From: Combretum micranthum
Lineage: Eukaryota; Streptophyta; Magnoliopsida; Myrtales; Combretaceae
NCBI GenBank assembly: GCA_024138025.1
Contig: JAMXBD010002763.1
Coordinates: 101,430-165,429 of the forward strand
Length of the DNA stretch: 64,000 bases
Direction of reading: 5' to 3'
Shown here: in pieces, positions 1,146-59,355 of the stretch
How positions within the stretch are numbered: the stretch's first letter is position 1
Layout of the letters: each line of letters starts with the position of its first letter
Notes under the pieces: generated by a model
What the model was told of the DNA's origin: nothing
The model's database searches: none
What the model saw: only the letters and a program-made list of their open reading frames with translations
Program-made: the position numbers and the translations under genes

Positions 1146-1213
1146 TCGGCCATTGGACGCCAAACTTCTTAATAATAATAATCGGGAGGTAGAGTGTCGT
1201 CCTGTCGGATCAC
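1146..1213 (-). other. Exon-like block of A1 (68 nt)
   Basis: On the minus strand it lies between GTAG at 1214-1217 and GTGAGT (complement of 1140-1145). Compared with A3 (28168-28236), one base is missing near its start, so the shared frame is broken although the DYYY-stop end is still legible. Confidence 0.55.
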
Positions 1214-3241: not shown

Positions 3242-3252
3242 GCAAAGATCAT

Positions 3253-5148: not shown

Positions 5149-5170
5149 GCGCTTCTTGGGAGGCAACCCA
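5149..5170 (+). other. Conserved block after the ORF (GCGCTTCTTGGGAGGCAACCC)
   Basis: It occurs unchanged in the second copy at about 14216-14236. I have seen similar blocks downstream of coding regions in Athila/Tat-type plant elements. Its function is unknown; a packaging or RNA-structural role is possible. Confidence 0.6.
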
Positions 5171-5449: not shown

Positions 5450-5489
5450 GACATTGGGGACAATGTCCCAATTAAGTGTGGGGGAGGGA
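5450..5489 (+). other. Internal hairpin plus polypurine tract (copy 1)
   Basis: GACATTG-GGGA-CAATGTC is a perfect 7-bp stem with a 4-nt loop (5450-5467), followed by AAGTGTGGGGGAGGG. It mirrors the module at the element's 3' end (6658-6696) and may act as a second, central plus-strand primer. Copy 2 is at 14519-14558. Confidence 0.7.
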
Positions 5490-6657: not shown

Positions 6658-6696
6658 TTGCTTGAGGACAAGCAAGTGTTTAAGTGTGGGGGAATT
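6658..6696 (+). other. Terminal hairpin and polypurine tract before LTR 2
   Basis: TTGCTTG-AGGA-CAAGCAA (perfect 7-bp stem, 6658-6675) is followed by AAGTGTGGGGGAATT, which abuts the LTR start at 6697. This is the expected place for the plus-strand primer. The same module stands at 15725-15763. Confidence 0.85.
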
Positions 6697-8391: not shown

Positions 8392-8397
8392 AGTTTT

Positions 8398-8415
8398 TGG
8401 CGCCGTTGCCGGGGA
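8398..8415 (+). other. Primer binding site, tRNA-Asp (copy 2)
   Basis: It is identical to 4239-4256. The middle LTR therefore acts as both a 3' LTR and a 5' LTR. Confidence 0.95.
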
Positions 8416-8536
8416 TTGATTGGTGATATTTTGAAAGCTTAATACTATTACTCTAGCCATTTTTCTTTTTTTTTTTTTTTGGGTTTGAATCTGTGGTAAG
8501 TTTACCTCTTTGTGCTTAACCTAATAAAGCATTATA

Positions 8537-9111
8537 ATGGATTTTGGTTGGTGGAATCATAAAGATCAATATTATAATGTCCTTTATAATCCTCAAAATG
8601 AACCTGAAATTAAAACAAATATTGTTTGTTGGTACTGTGGTGAGATAGTATATTACTGTTTATGTGCTAATCCCTGTTTTTATGATGCTCCTGCATGCAT
8701 TCAATTACCTCCATTGTTTTGTAATGAAGAAATTGTTGATGAAAACTCAAAAACTTTAGCTTATGAAAATTATGTTTTAGATACATCATCATCACTGGCG
8801 CTTTTCAATGAATTAGATTCTTTGCATGATTCTGACCATGTTGAGTGTGATAAGATGATGAAGAATGTTTGTGAATTTGATTTTGAAACAAAAATTTCTA
8901 AAAATTCTAATGAGCAAAGTGAAGTTCTGGAGGAAGGTTCGTTTGAGTTGATAAATGAGAAAATTCATGTTACCACAGAAGAAATGAAGGATGGAGAGGT
9001 CGAGCTGAAACAAGAAAATGTAGAAATCGTCTGTTCTACATTTGATGAAAAATCTGAAAGTGGGGAAGATCATGAGCCTATTGGATATATCATTGATTTT
9101 GTGATAGAACC
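8537..9111 (+). CDS. Cys-rich/acidic ORF of the non-autonomous element, copy 2, cut by a solo LTR
   Basis: About 191 codons are open from MDFGWWNHKDQYYNVLYN to VIEP, where B1 interrupts it; the frame would resume after the TSD (14016) and stop near 14064. The layout is an aromatic N terminus (residues 1-20), a Cys cluster at about residues 33-49 (C-x2-C-x6-C-x-C-x3-C) with two more Cys before residue 65, then an acidic C-terminal region rich in Glu, Val and Ser. No transmembrane segment or protease, polymerase or integrase motif is visible. Continued openness against the frameshifted copy 1 suggests it was coding when the element was active. Function unknown. Confidence 0.65.
9107..9111. repeat. 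Left TSD of B1 (GAACC)
   Basis: It matches 14011-14015, and the pre-insertion sequence is preserved at about 4947. Confidence 0.97.
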
Positions 9112-12100: not shown

Positions 12101-14010
12101 ATGAAAGTTTTATGTATTAAATGAAGTCCTTAAGTAATAGGTATCATAAGGTCTTAAATTTTAATGCATTAAACAAGTTTTCCCCAAATGAATCATTCAA
12201 AAAGTGGATTTTCTAAAATTCGGATTTTTGAGTAAGTCATATTGGAAAACATATTTACAAAGTGTAAAATGGGAATTTTTATGTAGAAATGAAGGTCATA
12301 AGTAGTATATATAATGAAGACTCAATTTTGACAAAAATAATTATATTTTCTTAAGTAACAAATCCAAAACAAATGGAAATGATAAAAGTTAGAAAACTAG
12401 ATTTTTCATAAGTAAGTTGTCATTATGGTCTTGCAAAATAAAAAGTTATAAAATTTCCTTTTAGTAAAATCATCAAGATCATGCATACACTAAGCTCATC
12501 TCATGTCATTCATGTTAGGAAATCATTTATATTGCATGTATAGCTAATCTATAAGATAGGAACATTACAAACGTTTACAAAACTATTTTTCGGAATCGGA
12601 AACCGTTACTGATCAGATCTGATCCCTCCGTTCCGAGACCTAAATGTTTTCAAATCTTTAAAATAATATTAGAAATAGATAGATCTTTCGAAGTAGATAG
12701 AAATCGATATATAATTTGCGAGATTCCGAGTTAAAATGACCAAGTTATGGCCGTTTTAAGTTGGAATTCCCGCTTAGGACGAGAATTACGAATTTGATAG
12801 TTCGTATGAAATTGTTTGGATTAGTTTGAGTTGAAATACTTATTAAAGTATTTCTTCCTTTTTAGGAGATCCCGAAATCGACAATTCCCTACCACCGGAT
12901 TACTATTACTAGAAGACCGGTGATCCAATGGCCGAGTGAGTTTTCTCCTTGTTTTGTTACCTTGATTGTGATTGTAGTTAGTTGCATTAGAATTATAGGA
13001 ACAAGATAAAAATCGATATGAATGGGGATGGGATATATGATGAGACTGTGACGAATGTGTGCCAAAGAATACTAAAGCATATCGAAATCCCGATTTGATT
13101 GGATAACTGCACCGTTCATATTATTTCTGTTATATGTGTGATATTGATTGGTCACTCTAAAAATGTATAAATATTTTTGACCTAAGCAAAAAATTAAATT
13201 GGTCATGCATCGCATTGGACATATTGCATTTGGTAGCATGCTACTCCTACGCAGGTCGATCGGTATGGTCCGTGGATGACTCGTTTGGATAACGAACCCG
13301 GTGCCAGAGCTCATTCAGGGGTACTAAGGCGCATGTGGATGCATTCTTGGATGAGCCTAGCCGAGTCGAGTGCTAAGAGCCAAGGGCTTGGGGACTAGAT
13401 GCGGTCGTGTAGACTCAATACCATTCCTAACCCAAGATACGGAGGGCGTAAATCCGTTCTGTGTGTGGGTTCCGGATACCCACGCATAATTGCTTGCTCA
13501 CGTGTTTGTTCATGCATAGCATATGATTGACTAATACTTGTTTGTTATGGTACGGAATTAAGGGAATTCTCACTAAGCTAGTGTAGCTTATACCCCTATA
13601 GTTGTTTAAATGAACAGGTTATCTCAAGAATGCAAAGTGGGGACCGAATTGGTTGGAGCCGGGAATGACTCCGGGATTTCGGCAAGAATAAGAATGTTTG
13701 AAGCTATCAACTAGTTATGATTTGTCTTGTAATAATTTATGTAGGGAAGTCTGTGGATGAATGTAATTGGAGTTGAATGATTTGTATTTTGAAGTATAGT
13801 GTTTTGTATCTGAAGTATAATAAATTGAATTTCCTTTACATTGTTTCAAGTTGTATCAACTTAAAATGCATTACTCCGATGAGTCTCCTCCATGTGTTAG
13901 ACGCCTTGTACATAGTATGGAAGCCTTCGCGTGACTGAGGTGGTCATTCTTAGGCTTTAATATTGTGTACGGCGGACTGCTACGTTTAGGGTACCCTTCG
14001 GGGCGTGACA
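9112..14010 (+). mobile_element. B1: type B solo LTR (4899 bp)
   Basis: It runs TGTAAGCCCCGG to CGGGGCGTGACA and is flanked by the perfect TSD GAACC (9107-9111, 14011-14015). The uninterrupted sister copy at about 4947 shows the empty site. Landmarks are a CT-rich leader (about 10560-10750), a donor-like site at 10857, the palindrome at 12714-12773, an acceptor at 12864-12865, the 70-nt exon-like block, a GTGAGT donor at 12936 and an acceptor at 13616-13617. I find no clear TATA box. Confidence 0.97.
12866..12935 (+). other. Exon-like block of B1 with C-terminal reading frame
   Basis: A CTTCCTTTTTAG acceptor precedes it and GA|GTGAGT follows. In the conserved frame it reads DPEIDNSLPPDYYY then TAG at 12910-12912. 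Codons differ from A3 mostly at third positions. Confidence 0.7.
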
Positions 14011-14015
14011 GAACC
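14011..14015. repeat. Right TSD of B1 (GAACC)
   Basis: It matches 9107-9111. Confidence 0.97.
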
Positions 14016-15763
14016 AATTTTCCAATACCCCTCCACCTATGAAAAATTTCTAAAATTTTGCTGAATCTTGTTGTGCTTAAAAAGAAAACTAGGATGAGAA
14101 GTAAATTTCTACTAATTTTGATAAAAACTTGTGTCTGGGACACATTTGTTTGGGATCCTGGTGGGTGAGAGTATCATTTTTGTTAATAAGTCGAGCCAAC
14201 GACGTTAAAAGAAGTGCGCTTCTTGGGAGGCAACCCATGTCTAACTTTCCTTTTCTTTTATCTTTTTCTTTTTCTTTTTAGACTTATGATCTTATCATTT
14301 TCTGCTATTGGTTGATGGTTAAGTGTTGTTCTTAATGGTAGGATGGAAATTCAAGAGGAAACAAAGCAGAAAACTCCAGCCCAGATGCAGTTTGTTATGA
14401 CTTGCTCTCACAGCTGCTCTATTTTGATGAAGAATATGACTATCTTGTAGCTGGATGTTGATTCTTAAATAGGGAAGTTCATTTTCTTTTTCCTTTCCTC
14501 ACTTATTGCATATATTTTGACATTGGGGACAATGTCCCAATTAAGTGTGGGGGAGGGATACTCTTGAGAAGGGAAATAATTGGTTTTCTATGCTTGTTTT
14601 GAATGTGAAAAAAAAAAAAACCCACTTTACACTTTGCTATTGTACTTGAAAATATACTCAGAAAAATGTTTAGAAATAGCATTCAAAAAAAAAAAAAAAA
14701 AAAGACTTCTAGTACCTTACTCATCTATTTTGTGATTAGTATACTTAGTTGAAATTGTAGGATGAAATCTAACTGTGGTAAACTTACTTACTAATTAGGG
14801 ATGGAATCTAGAGTCTAAAAGTGGATCGAAGTCCTTAGTTGAAAGTTAAATGGTTGTAGTTCTAAGCTTGTTGATTTATATATTTTCTTTTCAATAGTCT
14901 GAAAGCCATCCTAATCTTTGGTGAAAAACATATGAAGTTCATCACTTGGTGATCCTTTTTGGAATAAATCTCTTTGGAAATAATCATTGTTGTGCTAGAT
15001 TACAAATAGCATGACTCTTATATACAATTGATGAAAACCTATACTCCAATGACTCAAGCATTTGAGTTATGAGTATCCTAACTTGAAGGTTAGAGTGAGT
15101 AGAGAGTTCGATAGGGTCCCTTTAAAACCTGGTCACTTGGGTGATAAGCCCGGGATGTGCCGACTCGATGAACTCACTATAACGAGAAGGGCGGAAAGGC
15201 AAAAGTTCATTAGATGAACTTGAAAAAGAAAGCTGAAAAGATGCAGGCTACACCCTGTCCAGAGGAAAAGGAAAAGAAGCGGGCAAAAACCCATCCCTCT
15301 GAAGGCTAACAAAAAAAAAAAAAATTTTGAAGAGATTTTTAAATAAAAGGAGAAAATCCAGGGGAAGAACAGATGTAATTACTTTCACTTTAGATTGTTG
15401 TGCTTAGAAAAGTAGTTGAAGAGTTTATATATTTGTTAATAAGTGGTGAAGTATAACTAGGTCTCTTTTGCTATTGTTTGACTTCGTGTTTATTTTGTGA
15501 CTTTGGAAGCTATTTTTAATTGGTGAAGGTAAAGTTTAACTTACCTGGATTAGCCTTAGAATTTCGATTTTGGTATGCTAGTTACATATAAACGATAGAT
15601 TTGAGCAAAAGGTACAAAAGCAAGTTGTTATGATCTAAAATGATTTATGAATGCTATGTAAATTTTCACTTGTGAAAAATTCTAAGCATATTTGATGATG
15701 GTTTTTTCTTTCTTCTTAAATTGTTTGCTTGAGGACAAGCAAGTGTTTAAGTGTGGGGGAATT
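14016..15763 (+). mobile_element. Remainder of internal copy 2 of the tandem element
   Basis: It matches 4952-6696: ORF end, conserved GGGAGGCAACCC block (14216-14236), hairpin plus purine tract (14519-14558), A-rich runs, then the terminal hairpin and polypurine tract (15725-15763). There is no other coding sequence. Confidence 0.9.
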
Positions 15764-17569
15764 TGATGAACCAAAATTATTCCTATTTTATGAGTGCTAA
15801 AACATATATTTGATGGTCATTTTTATTGGGAATTTAGCACTTGAATTAATGGAGTTAAGCTTTCAGGTCTTTAAAGGAGATATTTTTCAAAGATTGCAAA
15901 GACTGGTCAAAAATGTAAAGTTTGAATCAAGAAGAACTCAACATGACAAGAATAAGCCATGTCCTTCAACCATTACAAGAAAGAAGCAAAATTAAGGGCT
16001 AAATATCAAGCTTTTGGAAGACATTTATGAGACACGACCTGTCCCAAACCGTGTCAATCTGGAAAATTAACTTTGCAAGGGACATTTCTAGGAAAAGCCG
16101 TGTCCCAAGTCGTGTCAGTGAAGAAAAAAACCACAGTAAAGGACACGACTCTGAGACAAGCCGTGTCCCCAGTCATGTCGATTTCCATAGTGAAGAAAAC
16201 AGCCAGACATTCAAGTGACATGACCTGTCCCCAAACTGTCGATTTGACAGTTCTTTACTTTTTGAGAAACGACTTTTTTAATGAATAGTAACCCCTATTT
16301 ATTAAAGAAACGTCTATTGGACATTAAAGGGGGTTACTTTGAAAAGCCAAAAGACCCGTAACTCCCGTAACTTCTCATTTCCTCCATAATGAGCATTCAA
16401 TTCCATTTATGTGTTACTTTGAAAAGCTAAAAGACCCGTAACTCCCGTAACTTCCCATTTCCTCCATGATGAGCATTCAATTCCATTTATGTGTTACTTT
16501 GGAAAGCCAAAAGATCCATAACTCCTATAACTTCCCATTTCCTCCACTAATGAGCATTCAATTCCATTTATGCAAAGATCATTATAAAATGAAGATGGAG
16601 GGAAGAATCAAAGGGAGAAGAACATAAAAAGGAGAGACAAAGACAAGAAAAAACACACTTTTACGTATTTTCACAGCATTTGTGCTTGAGTGTATCAATT
16701 TATCAAGGAACATCGTTTGTATTGCTAATATAATTTTAGATCCTTTCTATTTCTCCTTGTTATTGATTTATATTGTTTTATCTATGGAGAAGTAGTTTAA
16801 TATTGCTTGGGTATCGTGGATCCTTGATTGATTTCATGTGATTCTTTTGTTCTTAATTTCCAAACGTGTTGATTTTATTGTATTCAATAGCTTGTGCCTA
16901 AAGAATTAGTCTAATTGGATGGTGCATCCCATTGGATTCATGTTTGATTTTTGTTAAAAATAGACTGAGAGGTTGATTTAATGAATAGATCTAAAGCTAT
17001 TGATGAGATTGCTCATAATCACCTAGAGATAAGGATGGTGAAATCTTCTGTCACTCGTTTTGAAATTCATCACTTTGGTTTTAAAATGAAGGATTCTTGT
17101 TCTTTATGCAAATTTAAGTTGCTAATAGTCAGGAAGACATTCCGATAGTTTGGCTTAAGTTTAGGTGCTTTTGACTTTGAGAGAAGCATTAGCATAATTT
17201 AGTGAATCCGATGGTTCAATAATCAATACAATTTTTTGAGAAAATTCTTGAGTCACATGAATAGATCTTAGGTGAAGCATGACCCAAGCATCCTTGTGAA
17301 TTGATTTATCCTTTTGTATGCTTGCTGCGAAATCTGTGAATATTAGACTTAGTTTAGTTTCTATGTACATAAAACCAAATCTGATTTTTTTTTGGCTTGA
17401 TGATAGGAAAAGAGTGAGTAGAATTACTCATCAACATTCCCTAGGAATATGACCTAGATCATTTCTTTATGCTACATCTGATGGGTGCGCTTGCCCTGTA
17501 AGACCATAGTTGAAAAGAAAACGATTTAGAAAATTTATAAATTTAAAACTTGGTCTTTTGAACCTATCA
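15764..17569 (+). repeat. Third LTR of the tandem element (1806 bp)
   Basis: It has the same ends and length as LTR 1, with the 80-bp triple repeat and TATA box, and is bordered by the ATGAA duplication. Confidence 0.95.
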
Positions 17570-17574
17570 ATGAA
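17570..17574. repeat. Right TSD of the tandem element (ATGAA)
   Basis: It matches 2427-2431. The A1 sequence continues from 17575, as judged by the intact relative at about 26880. Confidence 0.95.
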
Positions 17575-19989: not shown

Positions 19990-20052
19990 GTGACGAAAGA
20001 TACAAGATTACCCTACCCGAGGATTACTAGACTAAGAAGATCGCAAATGGGA
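19990..20052 (+). other. Exon-like block of C1
   Basis: It follows TTCTTTTGTCTAG and precedes GAGTGAGTTATT. Frame: DERYKITLPEDY then TAG at 20028-20030. Confidence 0.6.
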
Positions 20053-22131: not shown

Positions 22132-25100
22132 TGTCACACCCCAAAGTATGCCCTACACGTGACAGTCCGCCACACTCAATATTTAAACTCAAGTAAGACA
22201 ATCTTAGTCTTCCCATGAGTTGAACATCGAGTGTAAGGCTCACTCTCAACATTCAGAGACCATCTTTGGTTCGTAGTAGCTTAAGGAGACATACATAGCA
22301 ACAAGAAGTAAATCATGACCGTCTCATAGAAAACATTCTATTACATGAACTAGGGGCATACCCCCAATAACACTGCTAAGAATCACAGGCTCACAAATTC
22401 CTTGTATTATCCTTCAGCACTGGTTCAGGGAACAGGATTAAGTCCATTTCTACTTTTAGGTCCGGCCTTAACAAAGCTCCTTAACATCTAAGAGCTGTAC
22501 CTGATGTCCCATGGGTCCTCGGAGATAGCCAAAGGTATTCATACTGCAATAGAAAACTATTGGGTATAAGCTATACTAGCTTAGTGAGAAAAACTTCCAT
22601 ATCACAATTAAGACAATCATTCAAGCAAGTGATTATTCAAGCAAGAAATGCATCAAACAAATGGTTCAACAAACATATGACCATCCGGAAATCATATTGG
22701 ATGGACTTGCGCCTCCATCCCGGTTTAGCAAGATTAACGAATCCTGCGATACAACGCCGTCTAAGCTCACGGTCAACTGAACAATATTTCGTTTTGTGGA
22801 TCACGATCAACCAACAATTCGTTTTTATGGATCACGATTAACCAACAATTCAATTATGGATCATGATAAACCAACAATTGCTATGCTCCATCCCATCGTG
22901 ATATAAAGGGTTCAATTATATTGAAGTCCAATAATCGGTTAACCAATTCTTTTAGGTGACCAAGCAATATCGCAGACAATCATTTCTAACTCATCTCTGC
23001 ACAAGCAAACTTATCACCCGGCTTCGATATTCTTTACTTCAGCTCACACACATCACACAGCAAACAATTAATATCTAACTAACCCCATCATGCATAATCT
23101 TCTCTTTTATCTTTGCTTAGCAACTAGTGCAACTATTATTACAATCACAAGCAATAATTGAAATCGGAAGAGATACTCACTCGGCCATGGTACGCCGGTC
23201 TCTTAAAACGGTAGTCAGGTGATAGGGTATCGTCGTGCTCGGGATCACCTACCAAATAAGAAAAGCCTAATCAGAATCTCATCAACTTCACTAATTCAAG
23301 CTAGGCATCTAAACTACTCAAAATCGTGACTCTCGCTATTTGCGGAGTTCCAACTTAAAACGGCCATAACTTGGTCATTTTAACTTGGAATTTCGCAAAT
23401 TTATATCGATTTCTATCTACTTCGAAAGATCTATCTATTTTCTAATATTATTTTCAGTTTGAAGACATTAAGGTCACGGAAACAGAGGGATCAGATCTGT
23501 TCTGTAACGTTTCTATTTCCGAAAAATTTGTTTCGCATTTATAAAAATGTTTTAGTTGATGACTCATGTATAGATGGTATATGAATGAATTCCTAGTATG
23601 ATGTCACGTGAGCTCAATATATGCATGTCTTGATGATTCTTGATGATGAACTCTTATGAACTCCTAATTATTATAAAACTCCATGATAGTCATTTCAAAA
23701 AATATATTCTTTCCAACTTTGCATTCCCTAGGGTTTTTAGGATTCTAATCTGGAATTACTTGTTATCTAAATAAAAATGAGTCCTTAAAACCTATACTAA
23801 CCATGACCTTCATTTAGCATAAAAATCCACATTTTTCACTTGGCAAATATGTTTTCAAACAAGCTTTTTACAAAAATCCGAATTTGGAAATATTCTTTCT
23901 TGCATTTTTCCTATGAGAAAACTGTTTAATGCACCAAAATTTAAAGCTTTATTATCTATTATCAAAGGACTTCACTTAACTTATAAAACTTGTAATTTGA
24001 GCTTGATACTAGGTGTTTATGTAGGCATTACTCTAAATTCGATTTAACAATTTGATCACTAACTCAAGATTTTCCATTCTAACTCCACTACTTGATTTTC
24101 ATATTACTCATGCCTAAACTCATCTAAACTTGTAAAACTCATTCTTAAAGATACCTATTACATAAACCTTTCATTTTTCATGAAAAATATGAGTTTTAAA
24201 GTGGTTTCAAGGTTTTTAAAATAGGTCTCAAAAATAACGAATTTTCCTTTGAACTTTGCTAACAAAAATCATTTCTTTTCAAGTTCTTTGCCTTATTTCA
24301 TAAATATCTACCAACTAACATGTTTATATATACACAAGGCCAGGCTTTTATGAACATCAATGCATAAAACACAAAATATGCATGTGAACATGAATGTCAA
24401 GGAAAACATGAGTGTCTAAACACTAGATCTACAACTTATAGTGCATGAACATGAGCTTAATGATACGAACATTAACTTTCCAAGCAAGATCTCTACTTTA
24501 CATGCATGAACATAATATTATTTCAACAATAACTCTTTTAAATACAAGATCTACTTTTTGTGATGGCTTGATATTCTTGTATTAGTTTTTCTTGTCCCTA
24601 GCATATGCTCATTAGGATTTAAAGTGGAAAACACACAAGAAAAGTCTTGCCATTACAAGATTTAGTAGTAATAAACTTAAAAATCATCACCTATGGAAGG
24701 ATTTAATGAAGAAATGAAGAAGAAAAGAGCTTGTTGTGGTGTGTAGAATGGGGAGGAGGCTCACGTACAAAGAGGGAGTAGAGAGAGGGTTTGTGATTTT
24801 TTTGACAAATGGAATGAAATGGAGAGAGAAAAGTAAAAGATTATTTATATTAGTGAATTTAGGGTTTGCTTGGAATAGTAAAAGAGATAAAATAATTCAA
24901 TTTGGGGCATAATTGGGGGTTTAATGGCGCCGGCCATATGGGGTGGAAGAGGGAGAGAGAACAAATTTTATTTGAAATTGATATTGTGTTATAAAATGTA
25001 ATAAAAGTGATAATTTAATAGGAGACAAAAATTTCTTGGAAAAGAAAATTTAATTGAGTAGTTGTAAGGATGTAAGAATAGGGTATGGGTAGTGTGTAGT

Positions 25101-25849: not shown

Positions 25850-25854
25850 CACCC
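25850..25854. repeat. Left TSD of A3 (CACCC)
   Basis: It matches 29242-29246. Confidence 0.96.
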
Positions 25855-26536
25855 TGTAAACCCCGGTATTCCAGTAGCTAGGAAAACCCCGGGAATTGGA
25901 AGCAAAACCCTTCCGATCAGGTTGAGTTTAGTGAATGAAGCCTAGGAACCCTAAATCCGCTTTCATTCGGTTTCATGGTAAATAAATATTATAAAGTGAA
26001 TGAATTCAAATTATTGTTCCAAGGTACATTTCAAACCTTTGAAAGTTTTAAATTCGGAATTTTTCAATTCCGGGCCTTCCGAGCCATTACGGAAAGCGTG
26101 CCCAGGCACGGATTCAGAAAAATGTTCCGAATATTCATTAGAACCCTAATTTATAAGGATTCCAAAAATATCAATTTCATAATTTTCCGAGCTATAAAAA
26201 TTACAGTTATAGCTTTTCCCGTGTTTTCGGAACAACCGGTTAAAGTAGATGTCTTGTCTACTATTCACAAGTACAACCTACACTACACACTACCCATACC
26301 CTATTCTTACATCCTTACAACTACTCATTTCAATTTTCTTTTCCAAGAAATTTTGTCTTTTAAATAATTTACATTTATTACAATTTCATTTACTAAATTA
26401 CAAAAATCAATTTTTAAACACACACATGCATCATGGTCGGCGCCCCCCCGCCCCCCCCCCCCCCCCCCCTTGTTTTTCCTCTCTTCATTTAATTAATTTA
26501 TTTCCATTTTGTAAAGCTAAACCCTAATTTACTTCA

Positions 26537-26552
26537 TATATATACATATATA
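26537..26552 (+). promoter_or_regulatory. TATA region of A3
   Basis: TATATATACATATATA is followed by CT repeats and an AUG-free leader. Transcription is predicted near 26570-26580. Confidence 0.6.
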
Positions 26553-28167
26553 CTCTCTCTCTTCTCATTTTCTCCTCATTTTAACTTTTGAAAAGAGAAA
26601 AACTCTCTCCTTTTACCCTCTTGTTGCCGTGAGCTTGCCCTCCCCATCCTCACATTTCCAACTTTGTTTCTTCTCTATTTCACTTCAAGACTCCATTGGT
26701 ATGTGTATTTAAGCTTTGTTTCTTCCTACTCTTGTAATGGCAAAGCTATATCTTGTGTGTTTTCTCATTTAATCCCAATGAGCTCATGCTAGGGACATGA
26801 AAACACATGAACAAGAATAACAAGCCATCACAAGACATGGATCTAGTGTTTAGATGAGCTTATGTTAAGATCTCACCTTGTTCATGCATGTAAAGTAGTG
26901 ATCTTGCATATATATTGTTATTCATGCCATGAGATCCATGATTTATGCATCATACTTAGTAGATCTAAAGTTTAGATACCCACATTGTCATTTACATGTA
27001 TGATCATAGAGTTATTTTCATTTTCATGCATTGATGACCACAAAAATGTAGTCTTGATTATGTATAGAGAAGTTAGATGGTGGATATTCATATATAGAAG
27101 GCAAAAACATTGAAAAAGGAAGGATTTTGTCAAAAATGAAATATTGAAAATTCGGATGAAATGGAAACCCTACCTTGAAAACTACCAAAATCACTTTCAA
27201 ACTCATATTTCATAAGAAAAATGGAGGGTATGTGTAATAGACATGTTGAAGGAATTATTTTCATGAGTTTAGATGAGTTTAGGCATAATAAAAATAAGGA
27301 AAACAAGAGGCGAAGTTAGAAGGAAAAATGTTGACTTTGGATGTGTAGTCAAATTCGTAATTTTGGGTAATGCCTAAATAAACACTTAGTATTTAAGTCT
27401 AAAATGGATGTTTTATAAGATAAATGAAGTCCTTGGATAAAGTATACATTGGAGCTTCACTTTTTAATACATTAGACAAGATTTTCCTTAAGAAAAATGC
27501 AAGAAAATGGAATTTGGAAAATTCGGATTTTTACAAGTAGCTTATTCGAAAACATGTTTACCAAAGGAAAAATGTAAATTTTTATGCATGAATGGAGGCC
27601 ATGACTATTATAGACTTTGGGAACTTATTTTTAGATAGAAAACAAGTGGACTACAAGACTAAAGCCAAAGAAACCCTAAGGAGTATAATGTGGAAAAATA
27701 GTCTACTAGAAATAACCTTTGCAAGATTTTCTAACACTTAGGAGTTCATAAGGGTTTATTACCACAAAAATTATCATGACCATGCACATATTGAGTTCAC
27801 TACATGGCATACACATTAGTAGTTCATTCCTATATCATTCATGCATGAATCACCAACTAGGAACATTTCTTATTAAAAGCAAAGCACATTTTCGAAATTG
27901 GATCAACTGCGGAACAGAACTGATCCCACTGTTCCGTGACCTTACTATTTTCAAAACTTAAATTTAATATTAGAACTAGATAGATCTTTCGAAGTAGATG
28001 AAGATCGATATAAAATTTGCGAAATTCCGAGTTAAAATGACCAAGTTATGGCCGTTTTAAGTCGGGACTTCCGCAAATAGCGAGAAATCCGAATTCAACT
28101 AGTCTAGATATATAGTTTGATTTAATTACATGATGAGAATCTCATTAGGACTATTCTTGCTTGGTAG

Positions 28168-28236
28168 GTGATCCCGAGCAGGACGACACTCTACCTCCCG
28201 ACTATTATTATTAGGAAGTTGGCGTCCAATGGCCGA
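28168..28236 (+). other. Exon-like block of A3 with C-terminal reading frame (reference)
   Basis: It lies between a GGTAG acceptor and GA|GTGAGT. Entered in phase 1 (xGT), it reads GDPEQDDTLPPDYYY then TAG at 28212-28214. A 22-nt untranslated remainder precedes the donor. The exon could supply the C-terminus of a protein begun upstream; no AUG precedes it in the leader. Confidence 0.7.
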
Positions 28237-29241
28237 GTGAGTTTACTTCCATTCTCAATTAATGCATGTGATTGTAATGTAGTGGCACTAGTGATGTAGG
28301 CAAAGATAAAAGAAATTGTATAAGCATGCTGGGGTATATGGGAATTATTTATGTTGTTGATTGTTGATATGTGAAATGGAGATTAAGGTATATCGAAACC
28401 GGGTGTTAAGATATTGACTGCTTTACTAGAATCTTATGATGAATGTCTGCGAATACTTGTTGGTCACTTAAAAGAATTGAATTAATGACTATTCGACTCC
28501 GACTATAAATTGAATTCATTCATGTCACGATGGGGTTGGAGCATTCGCATTGTTGGTTAATTGTGATCCATAAAACGACTTGTTGGTTAATCGTGATCCA
28601 TAAAACGAATTATTATTAGTTAACCGTGAGCTTAAACGGCGTCGTACCGCAGGATTCGTTAATCTGCTAACCCGGGATGAAGGGCGCAAGTCCATCCACA
28701 TATGATTTCCGGACGGTCATATGTTTGATGATCACATTTGTTTGATGCATACACTTGCCTGAATAATTACTTGTTTGACTGAATTATGTTTAATTGCGTT
28801 ATGGAAGTATTGCTCACTAAGCTAGTTAGCTTACGCCCCCATAGTTTCTATCTTTTGCAGCATGATTTTATATGGCTTAGGCGAGACAAGCCACAGCGCA
28901 GGTACCGGAGATAGGAGTTTCCCATAGAAGTTTAATTCATTCCTTTTTGTATAGACTTCCATTGGAAACTAAGGACTCTGGATGACTGTAATAGACTGTT
29001 ATTCTTTTGCGGGGAATGCCCCTTAGATCTTGTAAACTTTAAAATTATGCGTTTTGATTTATTATCTATGGCTAATGAATGCCTCGTTAAACTGTTTAAC
29101 TCCATTTGTTGAAGTATTCTATTGTCGTAAAGGAACGCTTTACATCTACTTAAGACTCCGAAGGCCCCGGGTAGGGAACTCGAGAGTCTTACTTAGTATG
29201 TGGCGGGCTGTTACATTTAGAATACCCTACGGGACTTGACA

Positions 29242-29246
29242 CACCC
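29242..29246. repeat. Right TSD of A3 (CACCC)
   Basis: It matches 25850-25854; B2 resumes after it. Confidence 0.96.
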
Positions 29247-29788: not shown

Positions 29789-30330
29789 ATAACCTTGCCC
29801 TTATTCATAGCAAGTAGGATCCATATGGTACCTTTAGAGCTTCAGGTATCTGAAAAACATCAAGAGACCGTTCAATTTGAGACAACCAATCTTCTGCTTC
29901 TTCTTGCTTTCTCGACATCCCCTCGAAGTATCAGCTTGATAAATTCAGGTAACATGTTCCTTTGTGGCCTCAAAGGTAGTGGAGGTGACAACTCACGATC
30001 ATATCGAGGTAGTCCTTGCACTTTAGCTACTGATTCAACACATTGTTCTTGATTTCTTGGTTCTTCCATGGGTGGTTGAACCGATGCAACATGTTCCTCG
30101 TTTCTTCTAGCTAATGCTTAAGGCATAGGTGGTGCCTCAACAAGTGGTGCTACAAGAGGCACTTATCTACCTTGCAACGCTTGTAAGATTAATGTATTCT
30201 GTTGTTAAATTGCTTGTAAAATAGTCTCTAAGCGATTAGGTTGTGGGTGGTTCAATATTAGGTGTATTCATTTGCACTCTTGCAGGTCTTCCCCTTCTAC
30301 CTCTCGTTCCCGGCACTCTACCATAAATTA
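29789..30330 (-). pseudogene. Element E gag N-terminal half, degenerate
   Basis: From about 30330 downwards on the minus strand it encodes a basic Gly/Arg-rich start (RGRRGRPARVQMN), a Gln-rich stretch, then MEEPRNQEQ and a long open piece (29872-30069). After a frameshift near 29885 it reads EAEDWLSQIERSLDVFQIPE, a typical Ty3/gypsy gag capsid segment, then a stop and ARL before the break. Rejoined with one 5-bp target copy, the frame passes straight into WWDSKV at 22131. This marks both parts as one gag gene split by B2. It is inactive. Confidence 0.8.
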
Positions 30331-30708: not shown

Positions 30709-31830
30709 TCATTTGCCCTTGTCTTGGGCATCTAATTGAGGGTACACATCTACTTTACTCGAGTCATTATCACTCAGCTCCTGTACCATAGTATGCTGTC
30801 CAAGCAGGGCAAGACTAAGGTCTGAACCATGAATATGTACTCCCCGTATGGTAGGAACACGCCTATCCTCATGCACTAGTACAGCCTCCTCACCACATAA
30901 ACATCCTCCATGTGACATACCTTTTTAAGTACATACTGGCTAAATGTACACTGTGTATGATCTACACCTCTTGCTCCTTGTGGTGCCTGTATAGTATTCC
31001 CACTCTTCACTTTCTTCACTTTCTTAGTAATGCCCCAATTTATCACTGGTAGCATCTCTCTTAGTTAGTCTCTTTTCCTGCCCTCCAAGTGATATCACTA
31101 TATCTTATGTGTGTTTATGTGAAAGTGTATCATAAATGGGTGAACTCACAAGATCTGGCTCCACCATAAGTATGATGGTAGGTCGTGCCAACAATACATC
31201 TCTTGGAAAATTGCAACTACTGAGGTGGCTCATCATCCATTCATCATATAAGGATCTGTACTTCACACTCCAACATGATCTTCTCTAAAATCATGTGCAT
31301 AGATCCTACCTTGACCAATATCTTCCCATATTCTAAAATCTAGAGGAGCTGGTCTCCTCGAATTAGATGATACTATAAATGCTATATTATCAATCTCTAA
31401 ACCCCCTCCATTCCTTCCAACAAATCTCTCAAATCTATAAATAAACCCATTAGCTGTACCTAGATCAGGGTGAGCTCTCTCCATAAAGAACAACCAGACC
31501 TTAAAAAGTGGATTCAAGCCCTGTCTCCATTTACTAAGGATCTACTCCAATGTCTTGGTAATGCCAGCTAAAGACAGATCTTCAACTAAAACTCTCAATC
31601 TTCTTCTATAATCTATCAATGTCTCTGAATAAACCATGTCAACTACTATCCATTTGATGTGACATGCAGCTGGGTTGGTCAGAAACACAAATAAAATTTG
31701 CATGATCAATAATTATCATACAGATTTTAATGTAGGTTCTTAATTCTACCAAAATCTACCCCTACTACTCTTAAATGGGCTCTACAACTACTATTATCTA
31801 TACCACTTGTATTATTACTCAAATTCATCC
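30709..31830 (-). pseudogene. Unrecognised coding remnants between primer site and gag of E
   Basis: On the minus strand, from the primer site towards gag, there are coding-looking pieces in different frames. First is a short ORF beginning MNLSNNTSGIDNSS (31727-31830). Next is a stretch with VDMVYSETLIDYRRRLRVLV, one stop, then an open ORF (31263-31517) containing NPLFKVWLFFMERAHPDL. Then comes a piece with YDEWMMSHLSSCNFPRD, and last an ORF (30709-30918) starting MSHGGCLCGEEAVLV. I recognise no family. It could be an additional ORF of this lineage, like those between LTR and gag in some Ty3/gypsy elements, or a captured host gene fragment. Frameshifts make it non-functional. Confidence 0.45.
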
Positions 31831-31849: not shown

Positions 31850-31861
31850 GCTTTGATACCA
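31850..31861 (-). other. Primer binding site of E, initiator tRNA-Met
   Basis: The minus strand reads TGGTATCAAAGC, one base from TGGTATCAGAGC, 8 nt after the LTR end GGGGCGTGACA. It fixes the polarity of E and marks the adjoining LTR as the 5' one. Confidence 0.88.
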
Positions 31862-33027: not shown

Positions 33028-33087
33028 CTGCTCATATTGTTCAATCATAGTAATCGATCAGAAAGTCCTCAACAGTGTCAAAATTAC
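33028..33087 (-). other. Exon-like block of E LTR (60 nt)
   Basis: The minus strand has acceptor TCATCTCAATAG before it and GAGCAG|GTGAGT after. In the same phase it reads NFDTVEDFLIDYYD then TGA (33041-33043). This supports age-deep conservation of the acidic/tyrosine tail. Confidence 0.65.
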
Positions 33088-33116: not shown

Positions 33117-33796
33117 TGTAAACCCCGATTTTTCAGGTAGCCAAGAAAGCCCTAGAACCGGAAACCAAAACCCTAAACCGGAATAGCTCAAGCCTGGAGT
33201 GAGAACTAGGAACCCTAATTCCGGCTTTTCCTCGGTTTCCAATTAATAAACTTTTCTAAGAAAATTTACTTTTGATTATAATTCTTGAATATATTTCAAA
33301 CTAAGAAAATATTTGATTTTAAGAAAATTTCGATTCCGGGTCATCCCGAGACCCATTATAGAAAAACGTGCCCCGGAACTAGAATTTCAAAAATATTCTT
33401 ATGAGTACTCATTTGAACCGAAATAAAATAAGGATTTCAAAAATATATTTTTCATAATTTTCCGGTTTATGAAAAATACATTATAGCCTTTTTATTCGTA
33501 TTTCATTACTACCGGAAATTAAATTGTCTTGTCAACTATTCATTACTATTCATAAAGTACCACCTACACTACCTAGTCTACCTATTAGCCTACCCTACAA
33601 ATCTAACTCTTAACATCAATCACATCTCCTCCATTCTTCCATGCTTTAGTCCTTTCAACTTCACTTTAATTTTGACACTTGATATAAATCAAATCAAGGC
33701 AAATCAAATGAAACAAACAAGTCTTTCCCCCCTTCCCCCCCCCCCCCATGCTCCTTTTGATTTTTTTTCTCATCCATTTAACCTAATTACACTTCC

Positions 33797-33804
33797 TATA
33801 TAAG
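33797..33804 (+). promoter_or_regulatory. TATA box of D1 (TATATAAG)
   Basis: It is followed within 30 nt by CT repeats and an AUG-free leader. Identical box in D2 at 41022-41029. Confidence 0.75.
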
Positions 33805-35431
33805 CCATCTTTACTCTCTCTCTTCCCATTCTTTCACTTCTCAAAAATTTCAAAGTGCAAAAGCTCTCTTCCTCTCCTTATTTTCCCCTTTGGCCGAAAC
33901 TTTGGAGCCCCCACACACACTCACAACTTCTCATTTTTCTCTTCTATCTTCCATCCACTTCAAGTAAGTTATGCTACTACTTCCAACTCATAAAACTTGT
34001 TATGGCTAAGTGATTTTTGGTATCTCAACTCCATGTTCCCATGATCTTTAGTAGGAACAATGAGATATCAAACAAAAATCCCGAACCATTACAAGTAGAT
34101 CTATCTTTTAAAGGAGTTTCTATACCAAAAGCTTTACTTTTATCCATCAAAAAGTCTTTTAAACAAAGGATCTTTTATAAAAATATGGTTTTTATGTTTT
34201 TAAAACTCATTTAAGCTTTTGATAAAGTAGATCCATCATCTTGTTACTCATGAGCATGTAGGCATTTATAGTTTCATTATTATTTTGTTCATATGTGCAT
34301 AAATAGTCTTTAACACTTTTGTCTTTAGTAAATGACTTTCTAGTGTATAGATCTATATATATATGGGTCCATGAAGTCAAAAAGAAAAGTACTTTACAAG
34401 AAAAAGACTTTTGAAAATTCGGATGACTTTGAAAACCAAGGTCAAAAACACTTTTAACAACTTCTAAACTTATATTTTATAAGAGAAATAAAGCCTATGG
34501 GTAATAGATAATGTTTAGTAGTATTTTTCATGAGTCTAAAGGAGTTTTTACTAAAGAAAATGTTGAAAACAAGAAATGAAGTCCATAGGAGTTTTGAGTT
34601 AAAAGTTATGAAAACCAAATTCGTAATAATGGATGTAGGGTTAGAAAACACTATTTTTCCAACTTCAAAAATGATATTTTCTTAAATAAATGAAGTCCTT
34701 AGGATATAGGTATAATAGATACTTAAAGTTTCAAGTATAAAATATATTTTTCCTAAAGGAATCAACTTGAAAATGACTTTGTAAATTCGGATTTTTGGAA
34801 ACCCCATAGTAAAAGACCCACTTAAAAGTTTGTAAATGTAGATTTTATTAAAGAAATAAAGGCCTTAGGATATAACTAATATAAGGACAAAATTTCTTTA
34901 AATAAAGTAGAGTTTTTCCAAAGGAAATCCATGTAAAATGTAGATGTGGTCAAATGTAGTAAACTCATTACTAAATATTGAGAGGAAATGGTTTCTAAGG
35001 AAAGTTTGTTTTCTAAAAATCGTTAAATCTAAAAGTTATAAAACATAGACTCTTAAGGTTCACATCATGACATTCATGATAGGGAAAATCATTACCATTG
35101 CATTTAGCATCATATTACACTTAGGAATCTCAAATGCATTCATGAAACCGCATTTTTGGAATTGACAAACCCGCTGTACAGATCTGATCCCTCAATTCCG
35201 AGGCTTAGATATTTTCAAAACTTGATTTAAACTTCATATTTGGAAAGCTCTTCCGAAGTAGATAGGAATCGGTATATAATTTGCGAAATTCCGACTTAAA
35301 ACGACCAAGTTATGGCCATTTTAAAACGGAACTTCGGAAATGACGCGAATTCCGATTTCACTAAGTTTCCTTAGAGTTTTAGTGTCCTAAGTTGATAGAA
35401 TACTTATTAGGGTAATTTCTTATATGAATAG

Positions 35432-35501
35432 GTGAACCCGTGGACGGTGACGAGTTACCTCCGGATTATTACTACTAGAAGACCGGAGTACCGATGGCGG
35501 A
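35432..35501 (+). other. Exon-like block of D1 (70 nt)
   Basis: Frame EPVDGDELPPDYYY then TAG at 35476-35478, flanked by ATAG acceptor and GTGAGT donor. Confidence 0.7.
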
Positions 35502-35807
35502 GTGAGTTTTTCTTCCCAATTCATTTATTGTATGTGCTTGTAAAGTAGTGCACTAGAATGTAGGTCAATTGAATGGAATATGAATAATGGGGATTATTGG
35601 GAAATTATATGATTGTTGATGATATGAGAAACAAATTAAGAATATCGAAACCGGGTGATAAACTTTGATTGTATAGTTAGCTATGATGGATTGTCTGATA
35701 AATTGATTGATCGCCTAAGTAAATTGGCTTAATCAACTACTTGAGTAAATGATAAATTGACATGTGCATATCACAAGGGGATGGAGCATGAGCATTTGTA
35801 GGTTAGT

Positions 35808-35940
35808 CGTGAACCATAAACGACATCGAATAATCGTAGGTTAGTCGTGAACCATAAACGACATCGAATAATCGTAGGTTAGTCGTGAACCATAAACGAC
35901 ATCGAATAATCGTAGGTTAGCCGTGAGCCATAAACGGGAT
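35808..35940 (+). repeat. 38-bp minisatellite in D1 intron-like region
   Basis: Three near-identical 38-bp units (GTAGGTTAGTCGTGAACC core, then ATAAACGACATCGAATAATC) and one diverged unit. Related arrays sit at the same place in A1, A2, A3, A4 and D2 with two to five units. Confidence 0.92.
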
Positions 35941-36539
35941 ATTGTCGTACCGCAGGATTCGTTAATCTGCTAACCCGGGATGGAGGGCGCAATTCCATCC
36001 ACATATGATTTCCGGTTGGTCATATGTATGTTGAACTCATGTGTTTGATGCATACACTTGCTTGATTAATAACTTGGTTGAATTGTTGTGATATAAATGT
36101 TTTTGTGGGAGATTACACTCACTAAGCTAGTTAGCTTACATCCCTACAGACCATTCCTTTTGCAGCTTACGCATTTATGGCTTAGGCGAAGAGACCCGGC
36201 TGAACAGGTACCGAAGCTAGGAGTTTTCCCTAGAAGTTATAATTTTTGTATTAGACTTCCATAGAAAACTTCTAAGACTTGGATGACTGTAATGGACCGC
36301 TAAATATTCTTTTGCGGGGGAATGCCCCTTAGAATTATGTAATATTTATTTATGTTCATGAATTATATCCTATTGCCCATGCATGCCAAATTAAGCTTTT
36401 ATCTCCATTCGGACTTGTACTCTATTGTGTAAAGGTACGCCTTACATCTATGAGACTCCGAAAGACTAAGGTGGTAATTCGGGAATCTTATATGGCATGT
36501 GGCGACTGTTACGTTTAGGGTACCCTATGGGGCGTGACA

Positions 36540-37892: not shown

Positions 37893-37959
37893 TCGGCCAT
37901 CACGATACTCCCTCAGTCGAAGTAGTCCTCGGGGTAATATACATCCTCCTCCTTGGTTC
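37893..37959 (-). other. Exon-like block of F (67 nt)
   Basis: Minus strand: CCTTTGTTTAG acceptor, frame TKEEDVYYPEDYFD then TGA (37913-37915), then GGCCGA|GTGAGT. Note the third stop codon type at the shared position. Confidence 0.68.
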
Positions 37960-42718: not shown

Positions 42719-42788
42719 GTGAACCCGTGGACGTTGACTCTTTGCCTCCGAATTATTATTACTAGAAGAAAGGCGAACCAATGGCGGA
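42719..42788 (+). other. Exon-like block of D2
   Basis: Frame EPVDVDSLPPNYYY then TAG at 42763-42765. The donor has mutated from GTGAGT to ATGAGT, so this copy could no longer be spliced there. Confidence 0.62.
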
Positions 42789-44164: not shown

Positions 44165-44235
44165 GTGATCCCGAGCAAGACGAGTACATTACCACCACCT
44201 ACTACTATTACTAAAAGACCGCGAACCATGGCCGA
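44165..44235 (+). other. Exon-like block of A4 (71 nt)
   Basis: Frame DPEQDEYITTTYYYY then TAA at 44212-44214, with GTGAGT donor after. The centre of the tail has diverged but the Tyr run and stop position remain. Confidence 0.62.
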
Positions 44236-51887: not shown

Positions 51888-51957
51888 GTGATCCCAAAAT
51901 CGACGATTCCCTACCACCGGATTACTTTTACTAAGAGACTAGTGATCCAATGGCCGA
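51888..51957 (+). other. Exon-like block of B3 (70 nt)
   Basis: CTTCCTTTTTAG acceptor, frame DPKIDDSLPPDYFY then TAA (51932-51934), donor GTGAGT. B1 uses TAG at the same place. Confidence 0.7.
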
Positions 51958-55219: not shown

Positions 55220-55231
55220 TGGTATCAGAGC
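55220..55231 (+). other. Primer binding site of B3, initiator tRNA-Met
   Basis: TGGTATCAGAGC starts 8 nt after the LTR end. It is the exact complement of the initiator tRNA-Met 3' end and shows that type B LTRs belong to a Met-primed Ty3/gypsy element. Confidence 0.93.
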
Positions 55232-56023
55232 GACAAGGTTTTGGGAATTAGGTGGGAAGACTTTAAGAGAATAGAATGTTAAGATACGATCTTAGGAATA
55301 GATAGGTAAGTGTTAGATGACCCTTAGGTAAAGAAGAACTAGATTTAGCTCAATGACCTTTAAGGTATGACTTTTGATTATTAAGGATTCAATTTATCTT
55401 GGAGACTTCTGGAGAACATAGAAATAGATACATAAGGAAGGAAGATTGAAAATATTTGATGGGACGATCGGATCTATTCTAGCAACTGAAAAATATAGGG
55501 ATAAGTGACCTTACCCGACTTTGGTTTAAGCCAATAATAGAAATGATAGATGCCCCCAAAAGATTTAGCAAATGGATATTGTTTTTGTTTGGAAGAAGCC
55601 AATCTCCTAGAAATAGCAATAGATCTTTCGTTAAGCATTAGGGACAAATAACTTTTTGAGTAAAAAGAACAAAGATGTTTTGAAAATGTAAACCGATGTT
55701 GTGGTTTATCATCTAGTTCATGAATTAATTCCAATGTATGTTTTGCATCATTTCTTTGAACTTTTGTAATGGAAGACTTACATCTTCTCTTGATTTCATG
55801 TATTTCGTATTGGATATTATGAAGTTCCTCTTATTGATTTTTATTTCAGTGGAATTTCAATATTTCTTATATATGATTTTATTTGCGTATTTCCGTGTTC
55901 TGTATTTTCGATAAGCTTCTTAAAGTCACTTTTAACGCCTTAAGACGTAATAAAAGATTTAGAGTTTTCACCTGAGTTTAATAAAATTGTAGGAGACATA
56001 CCCAACCACAACAAGAACCCATC
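55232..56023 (+). other. B3 untranslated leader
   Basis: AT-rich, with stops in all plus frames. An AATTGTAG acceptor-like site lies about 30 nt before the gag-like ATG. I see no conserved gene here. Confidence 0.45.
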
Positions 56024-56222
56024 ATGACTCCTTTAGGACTCGAGAACCAAGCGATACCTAAACCACCTAACCAAGGGGGAAATGCTTCAATAGAGATTGA
56101 ATGGCTTACTAGTCAGATAAGAAGCTATATACAACAGACTCAAGCCAGTTCAACGTCTACACCTGTAACATATGTGCAAGAAACGACGCAAGATGAGCCA
56201 CCATCACCTCAATACCACCAAA
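56024..56222 (+). pseudogene. B3 gag N-terminal fragment
   Basis: The frame starts MTPLGLENQAIPKPPNQGG and runs about 66 codons, polar and Gln/Ser/Thr/Pro-rich (SYIQQTQASSTSTPV). This resembles the poorly conserved start of chromovirus gag and lies where gag should begin. The deletion then joins it to H sequence, adding a few unrelated codons. No capsid domain or zinc knuckle survives. Identification rests on position more than sequence. Confidence 0.5.
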
Positions 56223-59257: not shown

Positions 59258-59355
59258 GATGCCATATCAATACTTTTTCTAAAAGGATGAGTCGCTCAAA
59301 CAATCCACTTAGTCGAAATAATCATCGGGATATGGGTATTTTTCCTTGGAATCAC
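59258..59355 (-). other. Exon-like block of C2
   Basis: Minus-strand frame GDSKEKYPYPDDYFD then TAA (59309-59311), followed by GTGAGT (complement of 59252-59257). The expected acceptor AG just before it is not intact, so the 5' border is approximate. Confidence 0.6.

What the first reader, a model, noticed from the sequence alone, without database searches (positions are those of the whole stretch)
28168..28236. Diverged LTRs encode one conserved protein C-terminus inside an exon-like block
In A3 the block between an acceptor-like site and GTGAGT reads GDPEQDDTLPPDYYY-stop. The equivalent block reads DPEIDNSLPPDYYY (B1, 12866), EPVDGDELPPDYYY (D1, 35432), EPVDVDSLPPNYYY (D2, 42719), DPKIDDSLPPDYFY (B3, 51888), DERYKITLPEDY (C1, 19990), TKEEDVYYPEDYFD (F, minus, 37893), GDSKEKYPYPDDYFD (C2, minus, 59258) and NFDTVEDFLIDYYD (E, minus, 33028). 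Differences fall mostly at third codon positions (four Pro codons, both Asp, both Tyr). The stop keeps its place while using TAG, TAA and TGA. Noncoding LTR sequence should not drift this way. All blocks are entered in the same phase (xGT or xGA). Because the AUG-poor leader cannot start this frame, I infer that an upstream coding exon, perhaps the end of pol before the 3' LTR, is spliced into the LTR. The LTR would then carry the polyprotein's last exon.
Basis: partly seen in the sequence, partly recalled or inferred. Interest (0 to 1): 0.88.

Follow-up and report, generated by a model that had tools for sequence, protein, structure and literature searches.

The report
Retrotransposon protein ends inside its LTR
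In what appears to be a plant genome, the long repeats at the ends of a jumping gene seem to hide one small exon that holds both the last 15 amino acids of its main protein and the start codon of the same protein, so that RNA would have to be spliced to make protein and left unspliced to be copied.

Summary
The window lies in an unnamed 1.86 Gb assembly, plant by inference, with long-LTR Ty3/gypsy elements that carry an integrase-chromodomain (Tekay-like). Their LTRs hold an exon-like block (A3: 28168-28236) whose last codons keep the peptide while silent sites change: of 1,960 windows in the ungapped parts of three aligned LTRs it scores highest. The missing upstream exon exists in the same genome: pol runs through the chromodomain to a splice donor (CAAG|GTACGT) 49 nt before the 3' LTR, at codon phase 1, the phase of the LTR acceptor; donor and LTR exon were read in one copy each of four families. 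The same exon also ends with ATG GCC GA|GTGAGT, and gag opens at an acceptor completing that codon in the 4 families readable of 6 tried. So one LTR exon would supply gag's start (5' LTR) and pol's end (3' LTR), while PBS and PPT lie in introns. No RNA was available and three junction searches found no spliced retrocopy, so splicing is inferred. LTR-overlapping pol ORFs (CRM, Reina), 5'aORFs in Tekay and splicing in Ogre, EVADE and BARE are known; this arrangement did not turn up in my literature searches.

The parts
25855..29241 (+). LTR copy A3 (solo LTR, TGTAAACCCC...TTGACA), target-site duplication CACCC on both sides (25850-25854, 29242-29246)
26560..26698 (+). likely first leader exon of A3: CT-rich, no ATG, after a TATA-like stretch, ending at TTG|GTATGT (donor 26699); start approximate
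   Evidence: transcription start inferred
28012..28076 (+). conserved RNA hairpin in the intron upstream of the LTR exon
   Evidence: z -5.9
28168..28236 (+). dual-use LTR exon (exon 2) of A3: acceptor AG 28166-28167, codons to stop 28212-28214, ATG 28229-28231, donor GTGAGT 28237
28861..28900 (+). start of exon-3-like segment after acceptor TTTTGCAG (28853-28860); likely 3' UTR exon in the 3' LTR; end not defined
   Evidence: inferred
12866..12935 (+). equivalent exon in B1 (GDPEIDNSLPPDYYY stop; ATG 12928; donor 12936)
51888..51957 (+). equivalent exon in B3, which is a 5' LTR followed by PBS and gag start
35432..35501 (+). equivalent exon in D1 (solo LTR 33117-36539, TSD ATAAT)
42719..42788 (+). 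equivalent exon in D2; donor reads ATGAGT
44165..44235 (+). equivalent exon in A4 (altered peptide, one codon longer)
19990..20052 (+). equivalent exon in C1 (stop two codons early; ATG 6 nt before the donor)
1146..1213 (-). equivalent exon in A1 (frameshifted)
23181..23248 (-). equivalent exon in A2 (damaged end)
33028..33087 (-). equivalent exon in E (GNFDTVEDFLIDYYD stop; ATG AGC AG then donor)
37893..37959 (-). equivalent exon in F (GTKEEDVYYPEDYFD stop)
59258..59355 (-). equivalent exon in C2 (GDSKEKYPYPDDYFD stop; no acceptor AG, longer spacer)
55220..55231 (+). primer binding site TGGTATCAGAGC 7 nt after the B3 LTR end (55212); lies inside the predicted gag intron
55993..56220 (+). start of gag coding exon of B3 after acceptor TTGTAG; first base completes ATG GCC GA| of exon 2; right end approximate (joins another LTR)
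31850..31861 (-). PBS of the E element (one mismatch) after its LTR end at 31870
31266..31712 (-). fragments of the 5' additional ORF (5'aORF) of the E element
30240..30317 (-). start of the gag exon of the E element after acceptor TATGGTAG, in phase with E exon 2 ATG AGC AG|; right end approximate

Best explanation
These are Tekay-like chromodomain Ty3/gypsy retrotransposons with 3.4-4.9 kb LTRs whose gag-pol reading frame begins and ends in one LTR exon. Transcription starts in the LTR. In the 5' LTR an AUG-free leader exon is joined to exon 2, which ends with ATG GCC GA; an intron that spans the rest of the LTR, the PBS and the 5'aORF is removed and gag continues. At the other end pol reads through the chromodomain to a donor just before the PPT; an intron that spans PPT, U3 and the start of R is removed, and the acceptor of exon 2 in the 3' LTR adds 15 residues and the stop. 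The stop lies 22-23 nt before the exon's own donor, so ordinary nonsense-mediated decay rules would spare it (recalled rule). Spliced mRNA therefore makes Gag-Pol but lacks PBS and PPT and cannot be reverse transcribed; unspliced RNA is the genome, and its ATG in exon 2 runs into a stop after three codons (ATG GCC GAG TGA in A3). Shown: sequences, phases, conservation. Inferred: transcription start, splicing, RNA roles and any function of the tail.
For: Coding-type conservation of the last codons. Constant length: 8 of 12 window blocks, 29 of 30 A copies, 19 of 19 F copies (one with an internal stop); the last two sets were chosen by similarity. pol donor at phase 1, 49 nt before the LTR in C434; AG|GTA in 53 of 53 loci found by the pattern, of 54 examined, not independent; phase 1 in 15 of 28 and 20 of 20 loci. 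The unspliced tail after the donor differs between families (GTSVPF, GTSVQF, GTIAKF, GTLV, GM) while the donor stays. Donor plus exon 2 in one copy of A, D, G, H. gag acceptor in the phase of exon 2's ATG in A, D, B3, E, with M-A-E-R predicted in A, B and D; ATG sits 8 nt before the donor site in 11 of 12 window blocks. Element identity: RNase H, integrase zinc domain and Tf2-1 SH3 above Pfam's cut-offs, chromodomain and gag just below theirs.
Against: No RNA evidence of any kind. No spliced retrocopy was found: two junction patterns gave 0 and one gave a single two-mismatch match in an unrelated host gene. In most intact frames pol has a stop of its own about 30 nt before the LTR (GTSVPF stop in A, GTSVQF in D), so splicing is not needed to end pol; in two D-like copies the frame instead runs on to (L107) or into (L108) the LTR. 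B copies seem to lack the pol end (none of 4 PPT-ending stretches has the chromodomain within about 250 nt) yet B LTRs keep exon 2, and B1/B3 differ by three amino acids. In the H copy the acceptor reads AAG. The pol ends of E, F and C2 were not read; gag starts of G and H were not reached. Acceptors of gag were picked by me from the sequence. One genome only; most loci are family A.
Confidence: 0.82

Rival explanations
1. Exon 2 is only a 5' leader exon that carries the gag start codon. pol ends unspliced at the stop before the PPT, and the conserved peptide is a relic of an older arrangement.
For: pol has its own stop about 30 nt before the LTR in A and D; exon 2 is needed for gag in any case; B LTRs keep it although B copies seem to lack the pol end.
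Against: The peptide end is under amino-acid constraint among families A, B and D and between F and C2; the donor is kept while the unspliced tail is not; phase agreement at both ends.
Confidence: 0.1
2. The peptide is an upstream open reading frame of the 5' leader, started without AUG, that regulates gag translation.
For: It lies directly before the gag ATG; its stop is 14-15 nt upstream of it in A3, B1, B3 and D1.
Against: Leader exon 1 has no ATG in A3 and D1 and by eye its length and sequence are not conserved; no coding-like window was found elsewhere in the ungapped parts of the aligned LTR; it does not explain the phase-1 donor at the end of pol.
Confidence: 0.05
3. The block is conserved as a splicing or RNA signal and the coding look is accidental.
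For: Splice sites at both ends are conserved and a conserved hairpin lies upstream.
Against: Changes sit at synonymous sites within two groups of families; best of 1,960 windows; shuffles 8 of 2000 and 5 of 1000.
Confidence: 0.03

Closest known systems
CRM and Reina chromoviruses whose gag-pol ORF extends into the 3' LTR (PMC3605345, passages and section 5)
   Same: The C-terminus of the polyprotein is encoded inside the 3' LTR next to the chromodomain/CR motif.
   Different: There the ORF itself extends into the LTR. Here the frame usually stops before the LTR and the LTR part is a separate exon about 2.3 kb inside it, with gag's likely start codon in the same exon.
Tekay chromoviruses with 5'aORF, e.g. 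sunflower Tekay group 2 (PMC11728184, passages and outline)
   Same: Chromodomain, additional ORF upstream of gag.
   Different: A text search of that paper gave no 'intron' and no 'splic'.
Ogre elements (passages in PMC6317226 and PMC1142308; original papers not read)
   Same: Intron-containing plant Ty3/gypsy elements with long LTRs and an extra ORF before gag.
   Different: The Ogre intron lies between the gag-prot and RT parts, not in the LTR.
BARE (PMC3735527, abstract and outline) and EVADE (passages in PMC12786077)
   Same: Separate RNA pools for translation and replication (BARE); splicing makes a special mRNA (both).
   Different: Ty1/copia elements (BARE: recalled); splicing makes a Gag-only RNA, and no LTR-encoded protein end is described in what I saw.
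Diaspora and other long-LTR elements (PMC1142308, passages)
   Same: Long LTR and long leader; splice donors in the LTR were predicted before gag.
   Different: No intron upstream of gag had been reported then and relevance was left open. Here phase and codon conservation support such introns.

Membership tests
Ty3/gypsy chromovirus | Integrase followed by a chromodomain at the end of pol | tested here: met
   Integrase_H2C2 1.4e-16, SH3_Tf2-1 1.1e-8; Chromo 7.5e-4 on a 53-aa piece, below Pfam's own cut-off; the integrase-core piece gave no match; 150 scored genome matches to the region
Ty3/gypsy chromovirus | TG...CA LTR ends, 5-bp target duplication, PBS for tRNA-Met | tested here: met
   A3 CACCC, D1 ATAAT; TGGTATCAGAGC after LTRs of B3 and C434, one mismatch in E; that this motif matches tRNA-Met is recalled
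Tekay clade | Long LTRs and 5'aORF upstream of gag | tested here: met
   LTRs 3.4-4.9 kb; 5'aORF in A, E and D
Tekay clade | Place in reverse-transcriptase phylogeny | not tested
   no tree was built
Tekay clade | gag-pol in one continuous ORF (as stated for beet chromoviruses, PMC3605345) | tested here: inconclusive
   Only parts of the ORF were read and they are damaged; start and end appear to lie in separate exons, without RNA proof
CRM/Reina type LTR-overlapping ORF | pol ORF itself continues into the 3' LTR | tested here: not met
   The intact frames of A, D, G and H stop before the LTR; two D-like copies (L107, L108) run on to or into it through small differences
Ogre | Intron between gag-prot and RT; no chromodomain | tested here: not met
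   Chromodomain present; the gag-prot/RT region was not read

The most novel reading that the evidence does not exclude
A single LTR exon is used twice by one retrotransposon: in the 5' LTR it gives gag its start codon, in the 3' LTR it gives pol its last 15 residues and stop. Because PBS and PPT are both intronic, splicing cleanly separates messenger from genome, and this may be the general reason why long-LTR Tekay elements have such long LTRs and leaders.
Probability: 0.6. Interest if true: 0.87.

Novelty: new variant of a known kind. Interest (0 to 1): 0.8.

Why it matters
A 2005 paper called the meaning of very long LTRs and leaders in plant Ty3/gypsy elements hard to ascertain; it noted that a long leader would need splicing but that no intron upstream of gag was known (PMC1142308, passages). 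If the reading is right, standard annotation of such elements misses the true start of Gag and the true end of Pol, solo LTRs scatter a coding exon with strong splice sites through the genome where it could be spliced into host genes, and the division between mRNA and genomic RNA becomes directly testable from sequence and RNA data.

Tried and rejected
Relatives in public collections: pattern scans of viral contigs, of genome contigs and a plasmid search found nothing; these hold bacteria, archaea and viruses. No tRNA or Rfam match in the window. Seven window ORFs against Pfam gave nothing above a cut-off. Spliced retrocopies: none; the one two-mismatch match is in an unrelated host gene. The leader exon 1-exon 2 junction was not searched. 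Upstream stretches of A copies: 3 of 38 are 3' LTRs with chromodomain; in 4 of 38 no LTR start was found. B copies: of 20 upstream stretches 4 end in a PPT, and no chromodomain was seen in any of the 20 (about 250 nt each). The stretch fetched for a two-LTR F copy missed the pol end; those for G and H and one of three for D missed the gag start. Considered and rejected: a captured host-gene exon (the upstream exon is pol itself); a coding exon elsewhere in the LTR (no other coding-like window in the 1,739 ungapped columns). An early checkpoint note of mine says 13 blocks; the count is 12. In the notes the B copies are called non-autonomous; what was seen is only the lack of a chromodomain next to the LTR and a 7.7 kb spacing of two LTR starts on two contigs.

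Full report
What was checked. The finding quotes nine exon-like blocks in diverged LTRs. All nine are in the window and read as quoted; three further A-type blocks exist, so 12 in all. Eight of the 12 read a glycine-initial 15-residue peptide with a stop at codon 16; A1, A2, A4 and C1 are damaged or altered. The layout is the same: pyrimidine-rich stretch and AG (AG missing in C2), the codons and stop, a spacer (14-15 nt in A3, B1, B3 and D1, longer in C2), ATG, a few bases, GTGAGT (ATGAGT in D2). The ATG stands 8 nt before the donor site in 11 of 12, 6 nt in C1.

Is it more than chance? In the alignment of A3, B1 and D1 the eight codons ending at the stop show 14 synonymous and no nonsynonymous codon differences, the best of 1,960 windows on both strands and at all offsets of the ungapped runs (1,739 columns); the best window not overlapping it scores 3. 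Nei-Gojobori counts for the last eight codons are 5.0/5.0 synonymous against 0/19 nonsynonymous for A3-B1, 5.0/4.7 against 0/19.3 for A3-D1, 4.0/4.7 against 0/19.3 for B1-D1, and 4.0/3.5 against 1.0/20.5 for F-C2. Between the A/B/D group and E, F, C2 amino acids do change (pN 0.32-0.44). Column shuffles of six families reached the observed value in 8 of 2000 and 5 of 1000. The signal is thus amino-acid constraint, strongest at the end (DY-[YF]-[YD]-stop).

The elements. A3 and D1 are solo LTRs with 5-bp target duplications. The LTRs are 3.4-4.9 kb. B3 is a 5' LTR followed by a PBS and the start of gag; E, on the minus strand, is followed by a PBS, fragments of an additional ORF and a gag start. 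The window is part of an unnamed 1.86 Gb assembly, in which the 40 best matches to the A3 block were scored of 1,747 candidates. One contig (C434) has two of them 10.2 kb apart; parts of its 3' and 5' halves were read as separate pieces. Of eight stop-free pieces, RNase H, integrase zinc-binding and Tf2-1 SH3 domains match above Pfam's cut-offs, chromodomain and gag just below theirs, and three pieces, the additional ORF among them, match nothing. The 5' piece has PBS, a 348-residue additional ORF and gag. This is the anatomy of a Tekay-like chromovirus; no phylogeny was made.

The upstream exon. In C434 the chromodomain frame ends ...IFEGQ and meets GGACAAG|GTACGT at L031:2321, 49 nt before the 3' LTR. 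The split codon is G|GT, the phase of the LTR acceptor before L031:4713, 2,392 nt further on. Of 54 loci with a pol end, 53 were found by a pattern for the PPT-LTR boundary; all 53 have AG|GTA upstream of it (48 CAAG|GTACGT, 2 CAAG|GTATGT, 2 TCAG|GTACGA, 1 CAAG|GTATGA). The remaining one, L093, reads CAAGGTACGT. These loci are not independent: most are family A, and L031 and L072 are one copy. They are 30 of the 150 matches with loci, 20 of the other 120 that I chose for variety, and four found by way of the LTR. Frames that reach the donor put it at phase 1 in 15 of 28 loci shown (the other 13 have lost the frame near the end; 2 of 30 gave none there) and in 20 of 20. Families differ in what follows the donor before a stop (GTSVPF, GTSVQF, GTIAKF, GTLV, GM): the donor is kept, the unspliced tail is not. 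In two D-like copies the unspliced frame has no stop there and runs on to (L107) or into (L108) the LTR. In four families donor and LTR exon were read in what is, by distance (about 2.3-2.4 kb), the same copy: A (C434), D (C1221, GEPVDGDELPPDYYY), G (C2577, GVEDEDLPFPEDYFDS, one residue longer) and H (C1311, ending SLPPDYYY but with an altered acceptor).

The second use. The gag exon begins at acceptors AACAG|A CGA (A, L032:3169; D, L125 and L126), TTGTAG|G AGA (B3, 55993) and GGTAG|A GTG (E, 30317 minus). In each, one base completes the codon begun by the LTR exon, ATG GC[CG] GA| or ATG AGC AG|, in the frame of the gag N-terminus: 4 of 4 families read, out of 6 tried (stretches fetched for G and H, and one of three for D, did not contain it). 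A, B and D give M-A-E-R. Four agreeing phases have a chance of 1 in 81, but I picked the acceptors, so this is optimistic. The same exon would thus start gag in the 5' LTR and end pol in the 3' LTR.

Mechanism. The 5' intron (2,913 nt in C434) contains the LTR end, PBS and additional ORF; the 3' intron (2,392 nt) contains PPT, U3 and the leader exon. A fully spliced RNA thus lacks both primer sites and can only be a messenger; an unspliced one can be copied, but its exon-2 ATG meets TGA after three codons. The stop of pol lies 22-23 nt before the donor of exon 2 in the four blocks measured, short of the distance that usually triggers decay (recalled). A conserved hairpin (z -5.9, -3.5, -6.1 in A3, D1, B1) lies about 90-155 nt upstream of the acceptor in A3 and could tune splicing. 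What the acidic, tyrosine-rich tail does is unknown; a role in integrase targeting or stability is a guess.

Copies. Of 30 A copies fetched (of 40 scored, 98-100% alike), 29 keep the frame and 25 the exact peptide. Eighteen F copies fetched (of 40 scored) and the window's own all keep length and stop; one has an internal stop; variable sites by codon position are 6, 3 and 12, yet only 13 of 26 variant codons are synonymous, so old copies drift as expected. Both sets were picked by similarity to a query, which favours intact copies. For B, 4 of 20 upstream stretches end in a PPT and none of them has a chromodomain within about 250 nt; with two LTR starts only 7.7 kb apart on two contigs, these B copies are probably non-autonomous.

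Against. No RNA was available. No spliced retrocopy was found, though spliced RNA lacking primer sites would leave few. In most intact frames pol has its own stop about 30 nt before the LTR. B keeps the exon without an evident pol end. Only one genome was seen, and that it is a plant is inferred from the elements.

Prior knowledge. gag-pol ORFs running into the 3' LTR are known in CRM and Reina (PMC3605345, passages and section 5); additional 5' ORFs in Tekay (PMC11728184, passages); introns in Ogre and EVADE and the statement that plant LTR elements otherwise generally lack introns (PMC12786077, passages); separate RNA pools in BARE (PMC3735527, abstract); no intron upstream of gag reported by 2005 (PMC1142308, passages). 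A text search of PMC3059260 on CRM elements gave no mention of introns or splicing. Passages of PMC7730604 (splicing of sunflower elements), PMC7264820 (additional ORFs) and PMC10309623 (spliced Cer1 protein) that I saw describe no LTR-encoded end of pol. Ten searches of an open-access library listed no paper that I recognised as describing an LTR exon used for both gag start and pol end; subscription papers were not covered.

Noticed in passing
28012-28076 (A3), 35276-35339 (D1), 12711-12775 (B1); core also at 8 other places: Strong conserved RNA hairpin in the LTR intron, the most conserved stretch of the LTR; core motif at 11 places within 3 mismatches.
   Followed up: partly
2432-17570: Repeats that read as a tandem LTR-internal-LTR-internal-LTR element (1.8 kb LTRs, about 96-98% alike) nested in LTR copy A1 and itself holding the 4.9 kb B1 LTR (interpretation by eye).
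   Followed up: partly
L032:1506-2549; window 31712-31266 minus; L129: Additional ORF between PBS and gag, acidic, resembling between families A, D and E by eye; no Pfam match for the A copy.
   Followed up: partly
33117 / 33087 and 40314 / 43829: Nested insertions: D1 sits about 30 nt upstream of the E exon, D2 inside A4; elsewhere A or B LTRs sit inside B- or E-type exons (L044, L057, L065, L136).
   Followed up: no
26100-26220: A conserved block in U3 of unknown meaning, shared by diverged LTR families.
   Followed up: no
G000:C401 and G000:C30: B-family LTR starts only 7.7 kb apart, with a PPT but no chromodomain before the LTR: likely a non-autonomous lineage that keeps long LTRs.
   Followed up: partly
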